From positions 372 to 9,859 of the forward strand of contig NZ_QULN01000021.1 of assembly GCF_003481705.1 (NCBI RefSeq): a DNA stretch of 9,488 nucleotides. Reading direction: 5' to 3'. Positions 172 to 9,488 of the stretch are shown in pieces; the stretch's first letter is position 1, and every line of letters starts with the position of its first letter. The DNA comes from Butyricicoccus sp. OM04-18BH. Lineage in GTDB: Bacteria > Bacillota > Clostridia > Oscillospirales > Butyricicoccaceae. Position numbers and translations under genes: made by a program. The notes beneath the pieces are model-generated. The model was not told where the DNA came from and did not search any database. It saw only the letters and a program-made list of their open reading frames with translations.

Positions 172-1752
172 TTAAAGTTCCATATCCTGTTGTCTGTGTT
201 TCGCCTGTGCCGGGGCGGTTCTTTGAGCCTTTTTCTCGTCTGCCTTATCCTGCAAGACTTCCTTGATGGGCTGCTTCTTAGGCGGCTCTTTACTTTCCTC
301 TGTGCCGGGTGTGGCTTTCCGTACCCAGTAGCGGATGTCCCGCAGCTTCTTCAAATCCTCCTGTACCTCGGTCAGCGGTACTTTCAGCTCTGCGATTTCG
401 CTGAGAAGGGTTTCCTGCTCCTCTTGCAGCTCCTTTTGGGTACTATCCTTATCGTCCGGGTGCTTGGCAAGGTAGGCGGCGGCTTTCGCATACCGGGCGA
501 CCTCCGGGTGTTCCTGTTTGAATTTCTCCTTTGTTTTCTTGAAAAATATCTTCTGGTACTTCTCATAGACAGGCTTACATTCCTTGCAGTCTGTCCGGCT
601 GGCAAGAATCCCGTCAATCACTTTGCTGCGGGCTTCCTTTGGCTTCATCTGACTGCGGTAATCTGCGGCTGATTTCCCGGAAGATTCCAGAAATACTTCT
701 AAGTCCTCCACAGTGGAAAGCCCCTTTTGCCGGAGATAGGACAGGGCTTCGCTGACTGCCTTTAAGTCCTGTGAAGTCCCCCGGTTCTGTCCAGCCCTTG
801 TCCAGTCCTTCCGTTCTTCCTTTCGTATCTCCATATACTTCATCAGCAGATTGGGAAGAAGTGTTGCTTCCTCCGCCGCCTTTTGTGCAAGCAGCTCTTT
901 CCGTTTTTCGCCCAGCTCGGTAATCCAGCCTTTGAGGTTTTGGATAAGCTGCCGGATGGACTTCATCAGGCGGTTGGCGGCTCTGATTTCCCGGTTCAGG
1001 TTTCCGATATTCGTCTGGATACCACGCTTTTCCATCTGCCGGACAGCAGCCCCCTCATGGACAGTGGGGACAATATCAAGCCCCTGTCTGGCATAGGAAC
1101 GCAAGTCCACACGCTCCGGACGGTCATTGGCTTCCAGATAGCGGTTCTGGATGACCTCCCATTCATGCCGCCAGATTTCGCAATACTTCTGGTCGTTCCA
1201 ATCCACCGTATCCTCCTTGTGGCTTTTCCATCTGCCGGACGGAAGTTTTATCCGTTCCCCGTTTTCGTCAAGGTCATAAACCTTGCGGCTCTTGGGAAGC
1301 CATTTTCCATGTTCGTCCATTGCCCTCATAGTGAGCATGACATGGGCGTGGGGATTGTGTCCCGGCGGATGGGGGTCATGGATTGCAAAATCAGCAATCA
1401 TGCCTTTGGAAACAAACTGCTGCTCACAAAACTCCCGGACAAGGACAGCATACTGGTCGGGTGGTATCTCTCTTGGGATGGTAAGCACCCACCGCCTTGC
1501 AAGCTGGGAGTTCCATTGCTTTTCCACCGCTTCGGCGGCGTTCCATAAGGTATTGCGGTCTGCATACGACCGTGGGGCGTTTGCCGGGAGCAGAATTTCA
1601 TTGTGGACAATACCACGCTTTTCCGGGTAGTGCTTCACTTGCTGGTCGTATTCACAGAACAGCTTTTCGCCACTCTGGTAAGCAGCGGCGGCAACCGCAG
1701 ACTGCCGCTGGCTGCGCTGAACAATCGTGATTTCGTTGTGTGGGCAGGGCAT
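172..1752 (-). CDS. MobA/MobL-family (MobQ) relaxase
   Basis: This 526-aa protein should nick the element's oriT, become covalently attached to the 5' end and lead the strand into a recipient through a helper conjugation machine. The relaxase domain occupies roughly residues 1-240. The N-terminus has the family-typical SAVAAAAYQSGE, with Tyr25 as the probable nucleophile, as in RSF1010 MobA. The metal-binding histidine motif is HDPHPPGHNPHAHVML (about 125-140), with His125, His135 and His137 the likely ligands. The rest is charged and probably coiled coil (about 240-500), ending in a Lys/Glu/Gln-rich tail; there is no primase or helicase domain like that fused to RSF1010 MobA. The start at 1752 has AAAGGAGGG eight bases upstream. 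A terminator hairpin lies 62 bp upstream of the start and a candidate oriT about 760 bp upstream. A separate primase follows. Family assignment is firm; the nucleophile is assigned by analogy. Confidence 0.95.
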   Translation of the reverse strand: MPCPHNEITIVQRSQRQSAVAAAAYQSGEKLFCEYDQQVKHYPEKRGIVHNEILLPANAPRSYADRNTLWNAAEAVEKQWNSQLARRWVLTIPREIPPDQYAVLVREFCEQQFVSKGMIADFAIHDPHPPGHNPHAHVMLTMRAMDEHGKWLPKSRKVYDLDENGERIKLPSGRWKSHKEDTVDWNDQKYCEIWRHEWEVIQNRYLEANDRPERVDLRSYARQGLDIVPTVHEGAAVRQMEKRGIQTNIGNLNREIRAANRLMKSIRQLIQNLKGWITELGEKRKELLAQKAAEEATLLPNLLMKYMEIRKEERKDWTRAGQNRGTSQDLKAVSEALSYLRQKGLSTVEDLEVFLESSGKSAADYRSQMKPKEARSKVIDGILASRTDCKECKPVYEKYQKIFFKKTKEKFKQEHPEVARYAKAAAYLAKHPDDKDSTQKELQEEQETLLSEIAELKVPLTEVQEDLKKLRDIRYWVRKATPGTEESKEPPKKQPIKEVLQDKADEKKAQRTAPAQAKHRQQDMEL

Positions 1753-2568: not shown

Positions 2569-2883
2569 TCATGGCCGTTTCCGGCCTGCGTCCTCTCCTT
2601 GAAAATTACCGTTTCCGGCGAATACTTTTTCCATAAGCTGACGGGTGCTGTCTTTGTGGAACAGCAGCTTCAAAAACAAACTGACCTGTTCATCCGTAAT
2701 GGCTTCCGGGTGGGGAAGGTAGCTTTCCAGCATGGCGGCTCTGGTGCAAAGCCGGTGTGTCCGTTCCTTCCGTGTCAGCGTCTTTATCTGGTGTTCCAAT
2801 ATCTTTTCTTCATGCTGCGCCCTCCGCAGCTTCTTTTCCGTTTTCTCTATCTCCTGATTGAGTTTTTCCAGCTTTTCATTCAT
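2569..2883 (-). CDS. DUF3847-family protein
   Basis: A 104-aa charged protein of the DUF3847 type found next to RepA-like and relaxase genes in Firmicutes mobile elements. Residues 1-45 (MNEKLEKLNQEIEKTEKKLR...) form a clear heptad-rich coiled coil. The middle carries LTRKERTHRLCTRAAMLESY, then a stretch (ITDEQVSLFLKLLFHKDSTR) recalling the relaxase-associated MobC-like proteins. The start codon overlaps the stop of the RepA-like gene by four bases (ATGA), implying translational coupling, and AAGGAGG lies 10 bases upstream inside that gene. Its stop is only about 45 bp from the predicted nick site. A role as oriT accessory protein fits the position but is inference; the family has no established function that I can name. 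Confidence 0.85.
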   Translation of the reverse strand: MNEKLEKLNQEIEKTEKKLRRAQHEEKILEHQIKTLTRKERTHRLCTRAAMLESYLPHPEAITDEQVSLFLKLLFHKDSTRQLMEKVFAGNGNFQGEDAGRKRP

Positions 2884-3218
2884 AGGCGGCTGTCCTCCTT
2901 CTTGGGAATGAGTACATATATTTTGTTGGGTTCCCCGAAGCCCTGACGCACTCGCAGTATCAGTCCGGCGTCCTCCAATTCATTCAGGGAACGCTTCACG
3001 GTCATGGTGCTGCGGGCAAGTGCCGCCGCCAGTTCCACGATGGGGAAATGGATAAATAAAATCCCGTTGGCGTCCTCTATGCCGGACAGGAAAACTAAAT
3101 CCAACATCCGGGCGTACATGACCTTGGCGGTGCTGCTGATCGGGAGCCGCAGCAAGGCTCTCGGCAGCGGCATACAGGGCGGCAGGGCGGTGTCTGCGGT
3201 CATAAATTCAACTTCCAT
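2880..3218 (-). CDS. RepA_N-like winged-helix protein (short replication initiator A)
   Basis: This 112-aa protein matches the N-terminal winged-helix DNA-binding part of RepA_N replication initiators. It has LPRALLRLPISSTAKVMYARML (about 18-39), a beta strand GILFIHFP, a helix pair VELAAALARSTMTVKRSLNEL (recognition helix near 72-80), and the family-typical wing GLILRVRQGFGEPNKIYVL. Full-length RepA_N initiators are usually more than twice as long, so this is either a stand-alone DNA-binding protein or a truncated initiator. The ATG at 3218 directly follows the stop of the 63-aa gene with no gap, and AAAGGAGG lies 11 bases upstream within that gene. The next gene overlaps by 4 bp. It may bind repeats in the 3463-3592 region, by analogy with initiators that act upstream of their own gene. 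Confidence 0.8.
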   Translation of the reverse strand: MEVEFMTADTALPPCMPLPRALLRLPISSTAKVMYARMLDLVFLSGIEDANGILFIHFPIVELAAALARSTMTVKRSLNELEDAGLILRVRQGFGEPNKIYVLIPKKEDSRL

Positions 3219-3943: not shown

Positions 3944-4765
3944 ATGAAAACCCGCATTTCCGTACAGGAACGCCTGAAAGATTTACGGGTGGAACAGGGC
4001 TTAAATCTGGAAGAACTGGCGCAGAAAACCGGCATTTCAAAATCAGCCCTCGGCAGCTATGAAAACGACAACGATGAATACAAGGAAATCAATCACGGCA
4101 GTCTGTTGAAGCTGGCAGACTTCTATCAGGTGTCCGTTGACTATCTGCTCGGCCTGACCAACAATCGGAAATATGAAAACACGCCGATAGAAGAATTACA
4201 TTTGAGTGATGAAGTCGTGGAACTGCTGAAAAGTGAACGCTTCAATAACCGGCTGCTGTGTGAGATTATCTCCCATGAAAAATTCAAGGAACTGCTGGCA
4301 GACGCAGAAATCTATGTGGACGGGATGGCAACCATGCGTTTCCATGACATGAACAGCTCGCTGGCTGCTGTGCGGGCGATGATACTGGAAGAACATCCCG
4401 AAGCGGTGACAGACCGGGCAATCAAAGTGTTGGAAGCCGGTCAGGTAAAGGAAGAAGATTTCTTCTGCCATGTGACGCACAAAACATGGGATGTTATTCT
4501 TCACGACATACGCAAGGCGCACGAAAATGACAATGAAAGTGCGCCTGATACCACTCCCGCCGATGAACTGATACGGGAAGTACAAAAGGCCATGCAATCG
4601 CCGGGGGACAGGGTTCAGCAATTCACGGAGATGTTCTGTAAGGCGTTCCAGCTTAAATATAAGCGGCTCTCACAAGAGGAACGAAGCCTTTTGAAGAAAC
4701 TGTTCAAGAAATCCCCGCTGATAAAACAGTCCGGTATGAACTTCCGGCGCAGGCCGTGGAAATGA
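3944..4765 (+). CDS. XRE-family transcriptional regulator
   Basis: A 273-aa regulator. A Cro/C1-type helix-turn-helix domain spans residues about 7-70 (ERLKDLRVEQGLNLEELAQK, then GISKSALGSYE as the recognition region, and LLKLADFYQVSVDYLLGLTN closing the fold). The remaining 200 residues are mostly helical and charged, without a peptidase or ligand-binding motif I can name, so it is not a LexA/ImmA-cleavable type by eye. The ATG at 3944 has AAGGAG ten bases upstream (3928-3933). A nearer ATG at 3935 opens only a three-codon frame and is rejected. It is the only plus-strand gene, divergent from the RepA-like set and convergent with the hydrolase operon. It probably controls mobilization or replication genes of the element and its own promoter; the target is not shown directly. 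Confidence 0.85.
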   Translation: MKTRISVQERLKDLRVEQGLNLEELAQKTGISKSALGSYENDNDEYKEINHGSLLKLADFYQVSVDYLLGLTNNRKYENTPIEELHLSDEVVELLKSERFNNRLLCEIISHEKFKELLADAEIYVDGMATMRFHDMNSSLAAVRAMILEEHPEAVTDRAIKVLEAGQVKEEDFFCHVTHKTWDVILHDIRKAHENDNESAPDTTPADELIREVQKAMQSPGDRVQQFTEMFCKAFQLKYKRLSQEERSLLKKLFKKSPLIKQSGMNFRRRPWK

Positions 4766-4811: not shown

Positions 4812-5576
4812 TTATATATGAATTTGGAAATCCTGAAACTTAAACAATCCATTTCCCTGTTTGAGTTTTCCGGCTCTCTCTAATTGTGCAAATCCGGCTT
4901 CAATATCGGCTATCAAAGAAACGGGAATATCCAACTGATGGTGTCCGGGCAGAACTTTTTTTATATTGTATTTCCGTATTCGCCTTATAGATTGATAGAA
5001 TAGCTTCGGGTCGGTAGTTGGGTAAAATGCGTCCAGGCTTCCCTTGTATATCAAATCCCCGGAATACAAATAGTTTCGTTCTGGTTCGTAAAAGCAACAA
5101 TGTCCGGGAGAATGTCCCGGCGTGTGAACAACTTGAATTTCCCGCCCGCCTAAATTTAGAAAATCGCCATCGTGTAAAATTCTTTGTGGGATACCTTGAA
5201 AAATCTGATAAGCGTTAATATCAAAATCTCTTGGAAAATCACAAGGAAGCCTTGTCAAATTATTCTTCACAACTTGCAATGGTATCGGAAACCTGACCGA
5301 TAGCCAGTCCTTTTCCGCTTCATGTACGGCGATATTATCAAAATACTTATGCCCGCCAATGTGATCCCAATGAACATGAGTTGTAACTGTCATAACAGGC
5401 AGCTTTGTCAGAGAGTCCACAATTTTTCTGATGTTGGAAACGCCTAAACCTGTATCAATGAGAATAGCATATTTTTCCCCACATAATAGATAACAATGTG
5501 TTTCTTCCCAGTGCTTGTATTCGCTAATAGAGAATGTATCACGGTCTATTTGCTCAATGGTAAACCAATTATCCAT
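4812..5576 (-). CDS. Metallo-beta-lactamase-fold hydrolase
   Basis: This 254-aa protein has the full zinc set of the MBL fold: HVHWDH (His67, His69, Asp71, His72), HTPGHSPGH (ligand probably His155), SGD (Asp174) and PGHH (His212). IDTG near 40-43 is the usual strand-turn before the active site. No signal peptide is seen, so it is probably cytoplasmic. The pattern fits the glyoxalase II/lactonase-like hydrolases rather than class B beta-lactamases; the substrate cannot be told from sequence. It starts 34 bp after the NTF2-like gene; GGAGG lies 12 bases before the ATG, somewhat long. It appears to be the last gene of the three-gene cargo operon and ends at a strong hairpin. Base composition is more AT-rich than the mobilization genes, suggesting separate origin. 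Confidence 0.9.
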   Translation of the reverse strand: MDNWFTIEQIDRDTFSISEYKHWEETHCYLLCGEKYAILIDTGLGVSNIRKIVDSLTKLPVMTVTTHVHWDHIGGHKYFDNIAVHEAEKDWLSVRFPIPLQVVKNNLTRLPCDFPRDFDINAYQIFQGIPQRILHDGDFLNLGGREIQVVHTPGHSPGHCCFYEPERNYLYSGDLIYKGSLDAFYPTTDPKLFYQSIRRIRKYNIKKVLPGHHQLDIPVSLIADIEAGFAQLERAGKLKQGNGLFKFQDFQIHI

Positions 5577-5610
5577 TCCGCATAATTACCTCCAGCAACT
5601 GAATTTCCAG

Positions 5611-6030
5611 TTAAAACCACTTTGCATTTTCATCTCTGAAATGTGGTATATTGCCATCTTTATAAGGGTCATACCGATTTTCGTTACAACCAAATTCTTT
5701 TAAGAGAGCAATCTTGCCATCTGGCGTCCATTCTATCAGTGACATTCCATCAAACGCTTCTACGTTACCGGCATCCATCTTATTTTTGAAATACCATTCA
5801 ACAATGGTTTGATTGCCTTTATGGAAAAATTGCTTGATGTCCCATTGCAAGACAGTTCCACGGGTATTCCATTCCTCAAACCAAAGTTTTATTTTCTTGG
5901 AGCCGTGGTACTCTGGCCCCCAACTTTCAATATATACGGCATTATCAGAAAATACATTAAATATACCCAAATCTTTTTTTGCAAGCCACATATCAAACCA
6001 AAGTCTGATAATTCTTTCTCTATTGTCCAT
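5611..6030 (-). CDS. NTF2/SnoaL-like family protein
   Basis: A 139-aa protein with the alpha+beta layout of NTF2-like proteins. An N-terminal helix (ERIIRLWFDMWLAKKDLGIF) is followed by FSDNAVYIESWGPEYHG, a typical turn and strand, then KIKLWFEEWNTRG, and strands TIVEWYFKN and GMSLIEWTPDGKIALLKEF. NTF2-like folds form a conical pocket used either as an enzyme site (SnoaL-type cyclase, isomerase) or a binding site; no catalytic residues can be assigned. AAGGAAGG lies nine bases before the ATG. The gene begins only 18 bp after the stop of the small regulator and precedes the MBL-fold hydrolase, so the three are likely co-transcribed and the two enzyme-like proteins may act on the same small molecule (inference). 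Confidence 0.8.
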   Translation of the reverse strand: MDNRERIIRLWFDMWLAKKDLGIFNVFSDNAVYIESWGPEYHGSKKIKLWFEEWNTRGTVLQWDIKQFFHKGNQTIVEWYFKNKMDAGNVEAFDGMSLIEWTPDGKIALLKEFGCNENRYDPYKDGNIPHFRDENAKWF

Positions 6031-6048: not shown

Positions 6049-6273
6049 TCAATTTAATTTTTCAGCGTCTTTGTCCTGCTCTAATTCAATTACATCCAAA
6101 ATGCCACAATTCAGGGCTTCGCAGATACGAACCAGCGTTTCCATGCTGATGTTTTTGCCTTTACCCATGTTGGCAATCATATTTGTGGTAAGACCGGCGG
6201 CAATCCGCAAGTCCTCTTTCCTCATATTGCGCTCAACCAGCGTGTGCCAGAGGGGTTTATAGCTTATGTGCAT
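6049..6273 (-). CDS. Small Cro/C1-type helix-turn-helix regulator
   Basis: A 74-aa protein that is almost entirely one helix-turn-helix domain: YKPLWHTLVERNMRKEDLR, then AAGLTTNMIANMGKGKNISM (recognition helix), then LVRICEALNCGILDVIEL. This is the compact HTH_26-like form common in mobile elements. AGGAGG lies four to five bases before the ATG. It is first in the operon with the NTF2-like and MBL-fold genes and probably autoregulates it: a palindrome CCCGG-tt-CCGGG lies between the promoter and the gene, and the CCGGTTCCG half of it is repeated on the far side of the promoter. Its target is inferred from position. Confidence 0.85.
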   Translation of the reverse strand: MHISYKPLWHTLVERNMRKEDLRIAAGLTTNMIANMGKGKNISMETLVRICEALNCGILDVIELEQDKDAEKLN

Positions 6274-6291
6274 TTATCCTCCTGCCTTTCT

Positions 6292-6372
6292 CCCGGTTCC
6301 GGGGTTTCTGTTCCCATTATATCAAAGTTCTTGCTATTCCACAAATATTTCTTGACACAACCGCCGGTTCCG
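6292..6372 (-). promoter_or_regulatory. Promoter of the cargo operon with flanking 9-bp repeats
   Basis: On the minus strand TATAAT (6321-6316) is preceded at 17 bp by TTGTGG (6344-6339), giving a transcription start near 6309 and a short leader to the ATG at 6273. CCGGTTCCG occurs at 6293-6301, inside the palindrome CCCGGTTCCGGG (6292-6303), and again at 6364-6372, so one copy lies on either side of the promoter. The motifs are GC-rich islands in an otherwise AT-rich stretch, as expected for operators of the adjoining small regulator. Confidence 0.6.
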
Positions 6373-6415
6373 TCTGGATTGTGCTTTTCCTTTCTTTTCT
6401 TGATTACATCTACTT

Positions 6416-6445
6416 AGCCATCAGCTGCTTCATGCCCTGGGACTT
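6416..6445 (-). other. Orphan 30-bp Maff2-like coding block, candidate attachment-site scar
   Basis: Read on the minus strand these ten codons give KSQGMKQLMA, a stretch I recognise from Maff2, the small membrane protein of Tn1549/CTn-type conjugation modules, where it is normally followed by GGG. Here it is followed by Lys and a TAG stop (6412-6410), and the residues before it (TLLLLLYRTSV) are not Maff2-like. The block lies next to the end of the serine recombinase gene, where an element terminus is expected, and is flanked by loosely inverted arms (ATTACATCTAC at 6403-6413 and GAAGTAAT at 6463-6470). It probably marks an insertion in, or an att core derived from, a maff2 gene. Confidence 0.5.
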
Positions 6446-6478
6446 TACTGATGTGCGATAAAGAAGTAATAGAAGTGT

Positions 6479-6535: not shown

Positions 6536-8146
6536 TTATTCGGGCAAGTCCACCTTGCCAACAAAAGAATAATAAATCTCAATGTCCTGTCTGCGGGTCT
6601 TGTTCTCGTCATAGCTGCACTCATGCACAACGATTTTCTCTACAAACTCCCGCAGCAGAGTAGGGGTAAGTTCTTCAAAGCTGGTATGCCGCCGGACAAC
6701 ATTCATAAACTTTTCTGCGTTCACGGTGGCTTCCTGTGCTTTGGAAAGCTCCGCTTGAATAGCAGCGGCTCTTTCTTTCAGCTCCCGTTGCTCTGCTTCA
6801 TAGTCTGCCGACAGCTCTGTGAAACGCTCGTCTGATATGCGCCCGGTCACGCTGTCCTCATACAGCCGCTTGAAGATAGCGGATAACTCGGCTATGCGTT
6901 TCTCGGAGGCTTCCAGTTCCTTTTTCTTGGCGGCGTTCCTGCGTTTGCCCCCGTCCTCGTTCTGCTCAATCAAGAGTTTCATAAACCGGGCTTCATGCTT
7001 TGCCGCATAGCTGGTCACTTTCCGCAGATTGGAGAGTACACCAGCGGTCAAGAGGTCGGTGCGGATAAAGTGCGCCGTACAGTCATGGGTGCGTTTCTTG
7101 TAGTTGCCGCAGATATAACAGTCCTGCTTGCGCTTGTCCGTCTGGTATCGCTGCTGATACATCACGCTGCCGCAGTCCGCACAGAACAGTATGCCGGAGA
7201 ACAAACCCACTTCATCATAGCGGTTTGGGCGTTTGCGCTGTTTGCGAAGCTCCTGCACCCGTTCCCATGTTTGGGTGTCTATGATAGGCTCGTGGTGGTT
7301 CTCGAAAATCACTTGCTTTTCCGGGGGATTTTCTACACTGTGCTTGACTTTGTAAGAAAGTTTTTCTGTCTTGAAATTTACCAGACAGCATGTGTATTCC
7401 CGGTTTTCAAGGATATGCACTACGGTATTGGTCGCCCACTTGCACTCATAGCCGGGGTGGTAGCGGCGGGTGCTGCCCGTCCTGCGGTATTCAAGCGTTC
7501 CCGGCGTGGGGATTTGCTGCTCTGTGAGCATACGGGCTATCTTGGTCGGACCATTCCCGGCAAGACAGAGGTTGTATATCTGCTTGACTACGGGTGCAGC
7601 TTCCTCGTCAATAATGAAATTTTCATCCTCGTCCATGAGGTAGCCATACACAGGCTTGCTTGTGATGGGCTTGCCATTCATGCCTTTTGAGCGTTTTACT
7701 GCTTTGATTTTCTTGCTCGTATCTCTCACCAGCCATTCGTTAAAGATATTCCGCAGCGGGGCAAAGTCATTGTCGCCCTGTGCGCTGTCCACTCCGTCAT
7801 TGATAGCGATGAAGCGGACACCTTTCTGTGGGAAAATCATTTCCGTGTACATTCCCACTTGCAGGTAGTTTCGCCCTAACCTCGACATATCCTTTACGAT
7901 AACTGTCCCGACTTTTCCGGCTTCAATGTCCGCAAGCATGGCTTGAAAACCGGGTCTTTGAAAGTTCGCACCAGAATAACCGTCGTCCGTGTACCAGCGC
8001 AGATTGGAAAAGCCGTTCTGCTTTGCATAGGTTTCAAGGATACGCTTCTGATTGGAAATGGAATTGCTTTCGCCTTGCAGCTCGTCCTCATGGGATAGTC
8101 TTGGGTAAAGGGCGGTAATTGGTTGTTGGTTGGTCTGTCTTAACAT
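6536..8146 (-). CDS. Large serine recombinase (TnpX-type, DUF4368 C-terminus)
   Basis: A 536-aa site-specific recombinase expected to excise and integrate the element. The catalytic resolvase domain is residues about 10-160: YPRLS with nucleophile Ser18, ELQGESNSI (22-30), then the conserved DMSRLGRN (86-93) with catalytic arginines. A recombinase domain follows (about 165-300), then a zinc ribbon with Cys322, Cys325, Cys343, Cys346 and Cys356. Next is a coiled coil (about 390-480) and a C-terminal part with FVEKIVVHE near 505-513, the DUF4368-like end. The DELQGESNSI stretch is typical of TnpX/TndX relatives from Firmicutes transposons. GGAGG lies five bases before the ATG. The gene sits at one end of its element in known relatives, so the junction just downstream (6400-6530) should contain an att site. 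Confidence 0.95.
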   Translation of the reverse strand: MLRQTNQQPITALYPRLSHEDELQGESNSISNQKRILETYAKQNGFSNLRWYTDDGYSGANFQRPGFQAMLADIEAGKVGTVIVKDMSRLGRNYLQVGMYTEMIFPQKGVRFIAINDGVDSAQGDNDFAPLRNIFNEWLVRDTSKKIKAVKRSKGMNGKPITSKPVYGYLMDEDENFIIDEEAAPVVKQIYNLCLAGNGPTKIARMLTEQQIPTPGTLEYRRTGSTRRYHPGYECKWATNTVVHILENREYTCCLVNFKTEKLSYKVKHSVENPPEKQVIFENHHEPIIDTQTWERVQELRKQRKRPNRYDEVGLFSGILFCADCGSVMYQQRYQTDKRKQDCYICGNYKKRTHDCTAHFIRTDLLTAGVLSNLRKVTSYAAKHEARFMKLLIEQNEDGGKRRNAAKKKELEASEKRIAELSAIFKRLYEDSVTGRISDERFTELSADYEAEQRELKERAAAIQAELSKAQEATVNAEKFMNVVRRHTSFEELTPTLLREFVEKIVVHECSYDENKTRRQDIEIYYSFVGKVDLPE

Positions 8147-8257: not shown

Positions 8258-8446
8258 TCAAATCGCCGTTTTTTGTGTAGCAGCTTCCGCTTCCAGCACT
8301 TTCATCATCTTGTCGGCTGCGGTGTCGGTTGCGCCCTGCTTGAAGAAGCCGGAAACGGTAAGGACGGAGTTGCCCATGCGGATTTCCGTCACACAGTCCG
8401 GGCGGCGGTCTGTTTTGGTGGTGCTTGTCTGTTTCGTTTCTGTCAT
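8258..8446 (-). CDS. TnpW-like transposon-encoded protein
   Basis: A 62-aa protein, MTETKQTSTTKTDRRPDCVT through to VLEAEAATQKTAI. It matches the small proteins annotated as TnpW next to serine recombinases in Tn4451-like elements; the core VTEIRMGNSVLTVSGFFKQG is the recognisable part. The ATG at 8446 overlaps the stop of the ATPase gene (ATGA) and has AAAGGAG seven bases upstream. A longer frame starting at 8548 exists but lies inside the ATPase gene and is not preferred. The predicted mixed alpha/beta fold has no catalytic motif. Its biochemical role is not established to my knowledge; the tight linkage suggests involvement in recombination or its control. Confidence 0.85.
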   Translation of the reverse strand: MTETKQTSTTKTDRRPDCVTEIRMGNSVLTVSGFFKQGATDTAADKMMKVLEAEAATQKTAI

Positions 8447-9297
8447 AGGCTCTCCTTTCGCTGCTTCATCAGTTGCTTTAAGCGTTCCAGCTTTTCCTGT
8501 GCGGTTTCCTTTCGGAAGTTGCTGCCCGTGAAGCGGACGGGGGCGCACATGGAAGTCAGCCTGTCATAGATACGGGCGTGGGGCGTGTCCTGCGGGTGCT
8601 GCAATTCCTCCAGCGTGAGGTTGGTCGTGGCGATCAGCGGCTTGCCGCTTCGGTAACGGCTGTCAATCACGCTGTAAACCTGTTCCAGCCCGTATTCTGT
8701 TCCTCGCTCCATACCGAAATCATCAAGTATCAGCAGAGGGTAGCTGCAAAGGCGGGAAATATATTCGTTCCTGCCCTCAAAGCTGGCGGCAAGGTCACCC
8801 AGTATCGTTGCAAAGTTTGTCATGCAGACGGCAACCTCTTTTTCCATAAGGGCGTTGGCGATACAGGCGGCAAGGTAGCTTTTTCCCGTCCCCACGCCGC
8901 CCCAAAACAGGTAGCCGATATTTTCAGCCTGCATGGTTTCCCAGCTCTCCACATAAAAGCGGGCGGTTTCGGTCTGCGGGTTTCTGCCGTTGTCATGCTC
9001 AAATGTCCAGTTCCGCATAGCAGGGTCGGTAAAGCCCCGGCGTTTCAAGTCCTCCACTTTTTCAAGGTGCTTCTGTCGGCTTTCGGCGGCTTGCTGCTTT
9101 TCACGGGCTGCCCGCTGGCAGTCGCACTCTGCCGGGTGGCGGTCACGCCCGAAACAAGTCTTTCCCTCTGCAAAATAGGCTTCTTTGGGCGTATGGCACT
9201 TACCGCAGTATAAAAGCCCGTCCTCGCCTGTGTAGTCCTCCGCTTCGGCGGTAGTGGCTGTAATGTCCGTAATCATAGCTTCAATTCCGTTTTTCAT
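8443..9297 (-). CDS. DnaC/IstB-like ATP-binding replication protein
   Basis: A 284-aa AAA+ ATPase of the helicase-loader type. The N-terminal part has a cysteine set (YCGKC at about 30-34, then Cys48, Cys58 and Cys60) that could bind zinc, followed by a coiled helix. The ATPase core has Walker A GGVGTGKS (133-140), Walker B LLILDDFG (188-195), ATTNL as sensor 1 (223-227) and IYDRL with a probable arginine finger (Arg246). It should load a replicative helicase on element DNA or otherwise assist replication. I chose the ATG at 9297 because AAGGAGGG precedes it and it overlaps the upstream stop by four bases. The longer frame from 9381 lies inside the preceding gene. The gene overlaps tnpW by four bases at its end. 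Confidence 0.9.
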   Translation of the reverse strand: MKNGIEAMITDITATTAEAEDYTGEDGLLYCGKCHTPKEAYFAEGKTCFGRDRHPAECDCQRAAREKQQAAESRQKHLEKVEDLKRRGFTDPAMRNWTFEHDNGRNPQTETARFYVESWETMQAENIGYLFWGGVGTGKSYLAACIANALMEKEVAVCMTNFATILGDLAASFEGRNEYISRLCSYPLLILDDFGMERGTEYGLEQVYSVIDSRYRSGKPLIATTNLTLEELQHPQDTPHARIYDRLTSMCAPVRFTGSNFRKETAQEKLERLKQLMKQRKESL

Positions 9298-9488
9298 AAG
9301 CTCTCGCCCTCCTTGCATGAATAATCGGGTATGCCCTGTTTCGGGGCAGCCTTGCCTTTGGCAGCGTCCTCCTGCGCCCACTTGTAAATGGTGGCTGCAT
9401 GGCTGTGGTACTGTTTCCCGGTGGAAGCGATATGGCAGGAAAGCCGGTCAATATAATACTCCCACTTGTCGGGCAACTCTGTTTTTAG
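9294..9488 (-). CDS. Replication initiation/replisome-organizer protein, C-terminal fragment
   Basis: The reading frame is open to the right edge; 64 residues are visible, from LKTELPDKWEYYIDRL to the stop at 9294. The stretch WEYYIDRLSCHIASTGKQYH, then SHAATIYKWAQEDAAKGK, resembles the C-terminal DNA-binding segment (Y-x-S-H-x-A-T-I-x-x-W) of DnaD-like and phage replisome-organizer proteins found directly upstream of DnaC-like loaders. It overlaps the ATPase gene by four bases (ATGA). A TTG at 9476 is not a start but an internal codon, since the frame continues upstream with good coding character. The N-terminal domain, which would decide the exact family, lies outside the window. Confidence 0.7.
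   Translation of the reverse strand, partial: LKTELPDKWEYYIDRLSCHIASTGKQYHSHAATIYKWAQEDAAKGKAAPKQGIPDYSCKEGESL

What the first reader, a model, noticed from the sequence alone, without database searches (positions are those of the whole stretch)
6403..6470. Maff2-derived 30-bp scar at the junction of two element segments
Ten codons giving KSQGMKQLMA stand alone, bounded by unrelated sequence, immediately beyond the serine recombinase terminus. The simplest readings are an att core acquired from a conjugative element's maff2 gene, tandem elements sharing that target, or the joined ends of a circular form. It suggests the element targets, or once sat in, the conjugation module of another element.
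Basis: partly seen in the sequence, partly recalled or inferred. Interest (0 to 1): 0.75.

Follow-up and report, generated by a model that had tools for sequence, protein, structure and literature searches.

The report
Two mobile elements splitting one gene
The short maff2-like stretch is what is left of a conjugation-element gene between the ends of two different mobile elements, which likely inserted separately at two sites 18 bases apart; elements of this kind are known to target this gene, so the find is real but mostly ordinary.

Summary
The minus strand at 6445-6416 reads KSQGMKQLMA, residues 42-51 of Maff2 (PF12750); shuffles of the window give no such match. It is not a stand-alone 30-bp scar. 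Element A (serine recombinase 6536-8146, end at 6446) joins maff2 at the AA of the Lys42 codon. Element B (window 1 to about 6427: MobQ relaxase, HTH genes, metallo-hydrolase) joins it at the CA of the Gln48 codon, 18 bp on. About 18 bp (6445-6428) are true maff2. The next 12 bp (6427-6416) belong to B's own end, which imitates maff2: it is also present at the 5 of 36 compared B ends that lie in unrelated DNA. Relatives show A alone in maff2, B alone in maff2, and both together with maff2 parts outside the pair. In 295 genomes site-1 occupancy did not differ detectably between B-bearing and B-free maff2 genes, so the pair fits two independent insertions. A's last 3,043 bp differ by one base from L005, whose element carries a tetracycline-resistance gene and resembles the published IME_Rho_tet; two maff2 sites are also published. 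New detail on a known kind.

The parts
6410..6445 (-). Composite junction reading KSQGMKQLMAK*: maff2 remnant plus element B's terminal codons and stop
6428..6445 (-). True maff2 remainder, 18 bp (codons 42-47, K S Q G M K), between the two insertion points
   Evidence: Varies with the host maff2 across 31 element-B ends in maff2; continues as normal maff2 in 34 of 80 element-A loci
6444..6445 (-). Inferred crossover dinucleotide AA of element A (site 1, Lys42 codon)
   Evidence: Left and right junctions of element A both keep AA
6426..6427 (-). Inferred crossover dinucleotide CA of element B (site 2, Gln48 codon)
   Evidence: Bases before CA follow the target and bases after CA follow the element at left ends, the reverse at right ends
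6416..6427 (-). Element B's own maff2-like end, CAGCTGATGGCT
   Evidence: 9-10 of 12 bases match maff2 also where B sits in non-maff2 DNA: L083, L101, L123, L124, L125
6446..9488 (-). Element A (IME_Rho_tet-like), recombination end; the rest lies beyond the window
   Evidence: 3,043 bp at 99.97% identity to 15 of 80 loci; one base differs, at 7390, in the four loci aligned base by base
6446..6476 (-). Element A terminus with the inverted-repeat arm that resembles the left-end arm of relatives
   Evidence: a 21-bp TIR is published, PMC12904643
6536..8146 (-). Large serine recombinase of element A (Resolvase, Recombinase, Zn_ribbon_recom, DUF4368)
8258..8548 (-). TnpW-family small protein
8443..9381 (-). 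DnaC/IstB-like ATPase
   Evidence: Same-length gene in the near-identical module of L005
9294..9488 (-). C-terminal end of a phage-type replisome organizer gene (cut by the window)
   Evidence: Corresponds to L005 7996-8853, TIGR01714
1..6427 (.). Element B, part of it; its recombinase and other end lie beyond the window
   Evidence: Same order as Vescimonas L085, where B alone splits maff2
172..1752 (-). MobQ relaxase of element B
   Evidence: NCBIfam MobQ 242.4 bits, cut-off 200; Pfam MobA_MobL
2569..3218 (-). DUF3847 protein and DeoR-like regulator of element B
3944..4765 (+). HTH regulator of element B
4812..6030 (-). Cargo of element B: metallo-beta-lactamase-fold hydrolase and SnoaL-like protein
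6049..6273 (-). Small HTH protein next to element B's end
   Evidence: conserved beside B ends in relatives

Best explanation
The maff2-like 30 bp is a composite junction: about 18 bp of a maff2 gene lying between two different serine-recombinase mobile elements that likely integrated separately at two cores 18 bp apart, plus 12 bp that are most simply the second element's own maff2-like end. Element A (recombinase 6536-8146) joins maff2 at the AA of the Lys42 codon. Element B (MobQ relaxase, window 1 to about 6427) joins it at the CA of the Gln48 codon. Relatives place the maff2 start (about residues 1-41) beyond A and the maff2 end (from residue 48) beyond B; in the best-annotated relative, L085, maff2 lies next to VirD4-like and VirB6-like conjugation genes. 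For the window these outer parts, and B's own recombinase, are predicted, not seen. Shown: the two boundaries, each element alone in maff2, and the pair with both outer parts in other genomes. Inferred: that the recombinases cut at AA and CA, that both elements are mobilized by a helper conjugative element, and that the window's host gene is a conjugative-element maff2. The order of insertion is not determined.
For: Of 80 element-A loci, the end is followed by the maff2 3' part in 34, by element B's left end in 10, by B's right end in 1, by other DNA in 31; 2 end at the contig and 2 are masked. At element A's left end the maff2 match stops at residue 43 or a few residues on, the last ones coming from A's own end. 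Element B alone: L085, L086, L112 match maff2 1-51 (48-51 from B's end), then B, then 45-70/71 (45-47 from B's end). Both: of 11 fetched stretches that start with a pair junction (one masked on the A side, L110), 7 reach the maff2 3' part behind B. G001 contig 25 and G002 contig 21 hold matches 1-43 and 45-70 about 19 and 21 kb apart. B's left end keeps its maff2-like 12 bp in 5 non-maff2 targets. In 29 non-maff2 targets of A, information is confined to AA at 0-1, GG at +9/+10, AT at +12/+13 and weakly +15/+16, all inside the 18-bp remainder.
Against: The window holds neither outer part of maff2, and no genome is held for it, so the outer halves are by analogy. In 4 of the 11 fetched pair stretches no maff2 3' part was found behind B (L104, L109, L114; L113 ends at the contig). 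In G046 the pair L115 has no maff2 5' match on its contig. L071 has B inverted behind A's end with TG in place of CA, and its other end is rearranged; a simple CA crossover does not explain it. L063 has its maff2 5' piece in inverted orientation. L125 has CAT and L118 CAC after the crossover, so the element-side sequence is not fixed. Recombination itself was not tested.
Confidence: 0.92

Rival explanations
1. A and B form one composite element that moves as a unit, and the 18-bp remainder is a fossil carried inside it.
For: The pair recurs: 18 of the 31 B ends in maff2 compared have A in front (one with the junction masked; 11 of the 18 came from the recombinase search itself and 3 more from genomes reached through it). 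Review PMC5704250 allows transfer of composite tandems (passages).
Against: Each element is found alone in maff2. The remainder varies with the host maff2 while the elements stay similar. A's near-identical copies L001-L015 sit in 7 maff2 and 7 other targets, with 1 at a contig end.
Confidence: 0.05
2. The junction is a circle or dimer junction (joined ends) of a single element.
For: A single recombinase sits next to the junction in the window.
Against: The two sides belong to elements whose known copies have different recombinases, 36% identical, each with its own second end elsewhere.
Confidence: 0.01
3. Element B alone carries a whole 30-bp maff2 mimic at its end, and A inserted there without any real maff2 gene.
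For: B's end does mimic maff2 for 12 bp from CA on.
Against: Upstream of CA the 18 bp are not carried by B: at the 5 non-maff2 targets they are other sequence.
Confidence: 0.02

Closest known systems
IME_Rho_tet (PMC12904643)
   Same: Serine recombinase with the element end 81-90 bp past its stop (here 90), terminal inverted repeats, MAFF2 genes as main target (116 of the 256 elements whose reconstructed site matched GenBank, in the paper). A relative with a near-identical recombination module (L005) has a tet ribosomal-protection gene, a methyltransferase-like gene (below curated cut-offs), a NikA/MobC-like gene, a PF03432 relaxase and the recombinase.
   Different: Only the last 3 kb are in the window, so resistance gene, relaxase and left end are unseen. 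The paper's main text has no hit for tandem or accretion.
IME_ScoC232_maff2_site1 and IMESp2907 (maff2 site 2) of streptococci (PMC5357655, PMC5704250; passages)
   Same: Serine-integrase IMEs using two different sites inside maff2. The site-1 element is listed with a MobP relaxase, replisome organizer and DnaC, comparable with element A's relative L005 (PF03432 relaxase, replisome organizer, DnaC-like); the site-2 element is listed with a MobQ relaxase, as in element B.
   Different: They are listed for different species; here both sites of one gene are used at once. Exact published site coordinates are in figures or supplements that I could not read.
Tandem accretion of IMEs
   Same: Two IMEs next to each other at one target gene.

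Membership tests
IME_Rho_tet (element A) | 3' boundary 81-90 bp past recombinase stop | tested here: met
   Stop ends at 6536, element end at 6446: 90 bases (paper section)
IME_Rho_tet (element A) | Inverted repeats at both ends | tested here: inconclusive
   Right arm in the window; left arm seen only in relatives, where a strict mirror search found none and the maff2 junctions showed it; the paper's motif is in a figure
IME_Rho_tet (element A) | tet ribosomal-protection gene, relaxase and MobC on the element | not testable with these tools
   Outside the window; present in relative L005
IME_Rho_tet (element A) | Integration in maff2 | tested here: met
maff2 site-2 IME such as IMESp2907 (element B) | MobQ relaxase | tested here: met
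   NCBIfam MobQ above cut-off
maff2 site-2 IME such as IMESp2907 (element B) | Own serine recombinase | not testable with these tools
   Outside the window; present in L085
maff2 site-2 IME such as IMESp2907 (element B) | Same position in maff2 as published site S2 | tested here: inconclusive
   Core at Gln48 here; the published coordinates were not readable
Tn5252-type ICE host | VirD4- and VirB6-like genes around maff2 | not testable with these tools
   Outside the window; present around L085

The most novel reading that the evidence does not exclude
Two unrelated lineages of mobilizable elements have divided one 70-codon conjugation gene between them: their cores lie 18 bp apart, just beyond the last base that element A's recombinase appears to read, and element B's end rebuilds the maff2 sequence past its own core. 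Each insertion therefore leaves the other's landing half-site intact, and both can ride on one conjugative element.
Probability: 0.3. Interest if true: 0.55.

Novelty: new member of a known kind. Interest (0 to 1): 0.33.

Why it matters
It corrects a likely misreading: the maff2 codons are a normal insertion footprint, not a scar. It also gives base-level junctions for two insertion sites in maff2. Because one of the two element families spreads tetracycline-resistance genes among gut bacteria (PMC12904643), knowing that double occupancy recurs and is consistent with independent insertion helps annotate such regions.

Tried and rejected
Preferential targeting of B-bearing maff2 by A: no signal. 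In 295 genomes, 5 of 12 B-bearing against 23 of 61 B-free maff2 genes carry a site-1 insertion, Fisher p 1.0; without the four genomes already known to hold pairs, 1 of 6 against 19 of 53, p 0.65. A first version had counted the G046 pair among the 27 site-1 rows (22 of 60, p 0.75); one search mends this. I sorted the rows by hand: 38 intact (one of them cut at a contig edge), 7 ending at position 51, 27 ending at 41-43. Left out: 7 further N-terminal rows (decayed, frameshifted, or ending at 29, 42 with a late start, 45 or 46), 2 rows below the cut-off, and the C-terminal pieces. The 27 were not each checked to be element A. The 5 pairs (G001, G002, G008, G011, G046) come from the B-end pattern, so pairs whose B end differs more would be missed. 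The second order searched (295 genomes, 7 with a match) was not used in this test.

Maff2 as a VirB2-like conjugative pilin: the idea came from its two predicted helices (model mean pLDDT 83, helices 2-36 and 39-69). No support: two unrelated PDB sequences at E 0.36 and 0.68, no Foldseek match at E 0.001 or better (105 at E up to 10, best 0.61; the 50 rows shown hold no pilin), no other Pfam match. Left open.

A degenerate pattern of the junction in viral contigs: 0 matches. Near matches of the whole window in plasmids: 9 records, none covering 80%.

Rows dropped: one search left out L015, L048, L066, L067, L071, L034, L068 (contig end, masked, inverted, or 18 bp of maff2 followed by a third kind of end) and did not profile the 10 B-junction loci. 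One search left out L089, L130 and second fetches of the same place.

Full report
What is there. On the minus strand, window 6445-6416 reads KSQGMKQLMA and 6415-6410 reads K-stop. A degenerate Maff2 pattern with up to 3 mismatches finds only this place, with no mismatch, and 0 of 200 shuffles give one. An intact relative in L064 is Pfam Maff2 (PF12750) over its full 70 positions; the ten residues are 42-51 of it.

Element A. The recombinase at 6536-8146 is a large serine recombinase. A scan of genome contigs gave 509 related stretches, of which the best 80 were kept. After the recombinase stop the sequence stays closely similar for about 80-90 bp where it can be read and then changes: to the maff2 3' part in 34 of 80, to a second element's left end in 10, to that element's inverted right end in 1, to other DNA in 31, with 2 contig ends and 2 masked. 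Where the other end of element A meets maff2, the maff2 match stops at residue 43 or a few residues on. The last matched residues there are written by A's end itself, so the gene proper stops after residue 41 plus AA. Left and right junctions share AA, the first two bases of the Lys42 codon. The last 3,043 bp of A in the window match 15 loci (L001-L015) at 99.97%; the four aligned base by base (L001, L004, L005, L014) differ from it at one base, 7390. Of those 15, 7 sit in maff2, 7 elsewhere, 1 ends at the contig.

Element B. A blast of window 6150-6440 against plasmid records led to element B on its own, and the shared end sequence GAAAGGAAAAGCACAATCCAGACGG to further copies. In a Vescimonas plasmid record (L085) it splits a maff2 gene that lies beside VirD4-like and VirB6-like genes; it carries a MobQ relaxase and its own recombinase near the far end. 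That recombinase is 36% identical to A's. B's left end follows maff2 up to Lys47 and continues CAG-T/C-T..ATGGC..AA..stop; its right end reads ...ATAAAACAG and then the maff2 3' part. Ten of 15 loci examined show that right junction, and the same ten show a maff2 match 45-70/71 there (in L110 45-69).

Which bases are maff2. Among 36 B left ends compared, 31 are in maff2 and 5 in unrelated DNA (L083, L101, L123, L124, L125). The 18 bases before CA follow the target. The 12 bases from CA on are kept in unrelated targets too, 9-10 of 12 matching maff2. These ends are related by descent, so they are not independent. The window's CAGCTGATGGCT (6427-6416) is thus most simply B's own end, and true maff2 is 6445-6428. 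L110 supports the position of the crossover: its target-side sequence after CAG (CTTGTCGC) stays at the right end while the left end has B's version.

Both together. Of the 31 B ends in maff2, 18 have A in front (one masked) and 13 do not. Eleven of the 18 were found through A and 3 more in genomes reached through A, so this is not an unbiased sample. In two contigs maff2 matches 1-43 and 45-70 lie about 19 and 21 kb apart with the pair in between (G001 contig 25, G002 contig 21). In a search of 295 genomes of one order with PF12750, 44 have a match. Site-1 occupancy is 5 of 12 among B-bearing and 23 of 61 among B-free genes, p 1.0; leaving out the four genomes already known to hold pairs gives 1 of 6 against 19 of 53, p 0.65. 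The numbers are small, but the pair is what independent insertion predicts. In 29 non-maff2 targets of A the informative positions are AA, GG at +9/+10, AT at +12/+13 and weakly +15/+16. B's core is at +18, so B's insertion would not remove what A's recombinase appears to read. That last step is inference.

What does not fit. L071 has B inverted with TG at the core, and its far end is rearranged. L063 has the maff2 5' piece inverted. The pair L115 has no maff2 5' match on its contig. L104, L109 and L114 show no maff2 3' part behind B. L034 and L068 show 18 bp of maff2 followed by yet another kind of end. L118 and L125 differ right after CA.

Comparison with the literature. PMC12904643 (abstract, sections 13 and 15, passages) describes IME_Rho_tet: 504 complete elements, the 3' end 81-90 bp past the recombinase stop, MAFF2 genes as target in 116 of 256 elements whose reconstructed site matched GenBank. 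Relative L005 carries a tet ribosomal-protection gene, a methyltransferase-like gene, a NikA/MobC-like gene, a PF03432 relaxase, a replisome organizer and a DnaC-like gene. A blast with L005's tet-class gene matched 30 of 80 loci, many at only 66-72% and over part of its length, so not all were shown to carry one. PMC5357655 (passages) reports two serine integrases using two locations in maff2. PMC5704250 (passages) lists IME_ScoC232_maff2_site1 (MobP) and IMESp2907 (MobQ, site 2). These fit A and B in kind. I saw no description of both in one gene in the listings or in the passages read; supplements were not readable and most subscription papers are not held.

Verdict. The finding is correct in what it saw and partly correct in its reading. 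It is a well-delimited example of a known kind, with base-level detail that may be new.

Noticed in passing
L071 around 11671-11780: Element B sits inverted behind element A's end, with TG where CA is expected; a B left end in the same genome (L130) is next to rearranged sequence.
   Followed up: partly
L034 and L068 after the element-A end: 18 bp of maff2 followed by a third kind of element end (CACTT...), suggesting more elements use site 2.
   Followed up: no
window 4812-6030: Metallo-beta-lactamase-fold hydrolase plus SnoaL-like gene as cargo of element B; the former is 77% identical over 558 bp to a gene on a Clostridioides difficile plasmid.
   Followed up: no
G121 contig 20, 158822-160676; G108 contig 9, 17916-18426; L064: maff2 occurs in two or three neighbouring copies in some places, so one interrupted copy may leave another intact.
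   Followed up: no
Cutibacterium plasmid NZ_LC473083.1 near 24534: The near match to the window starts at 6448, next to the end of element A.
   Followed up: no
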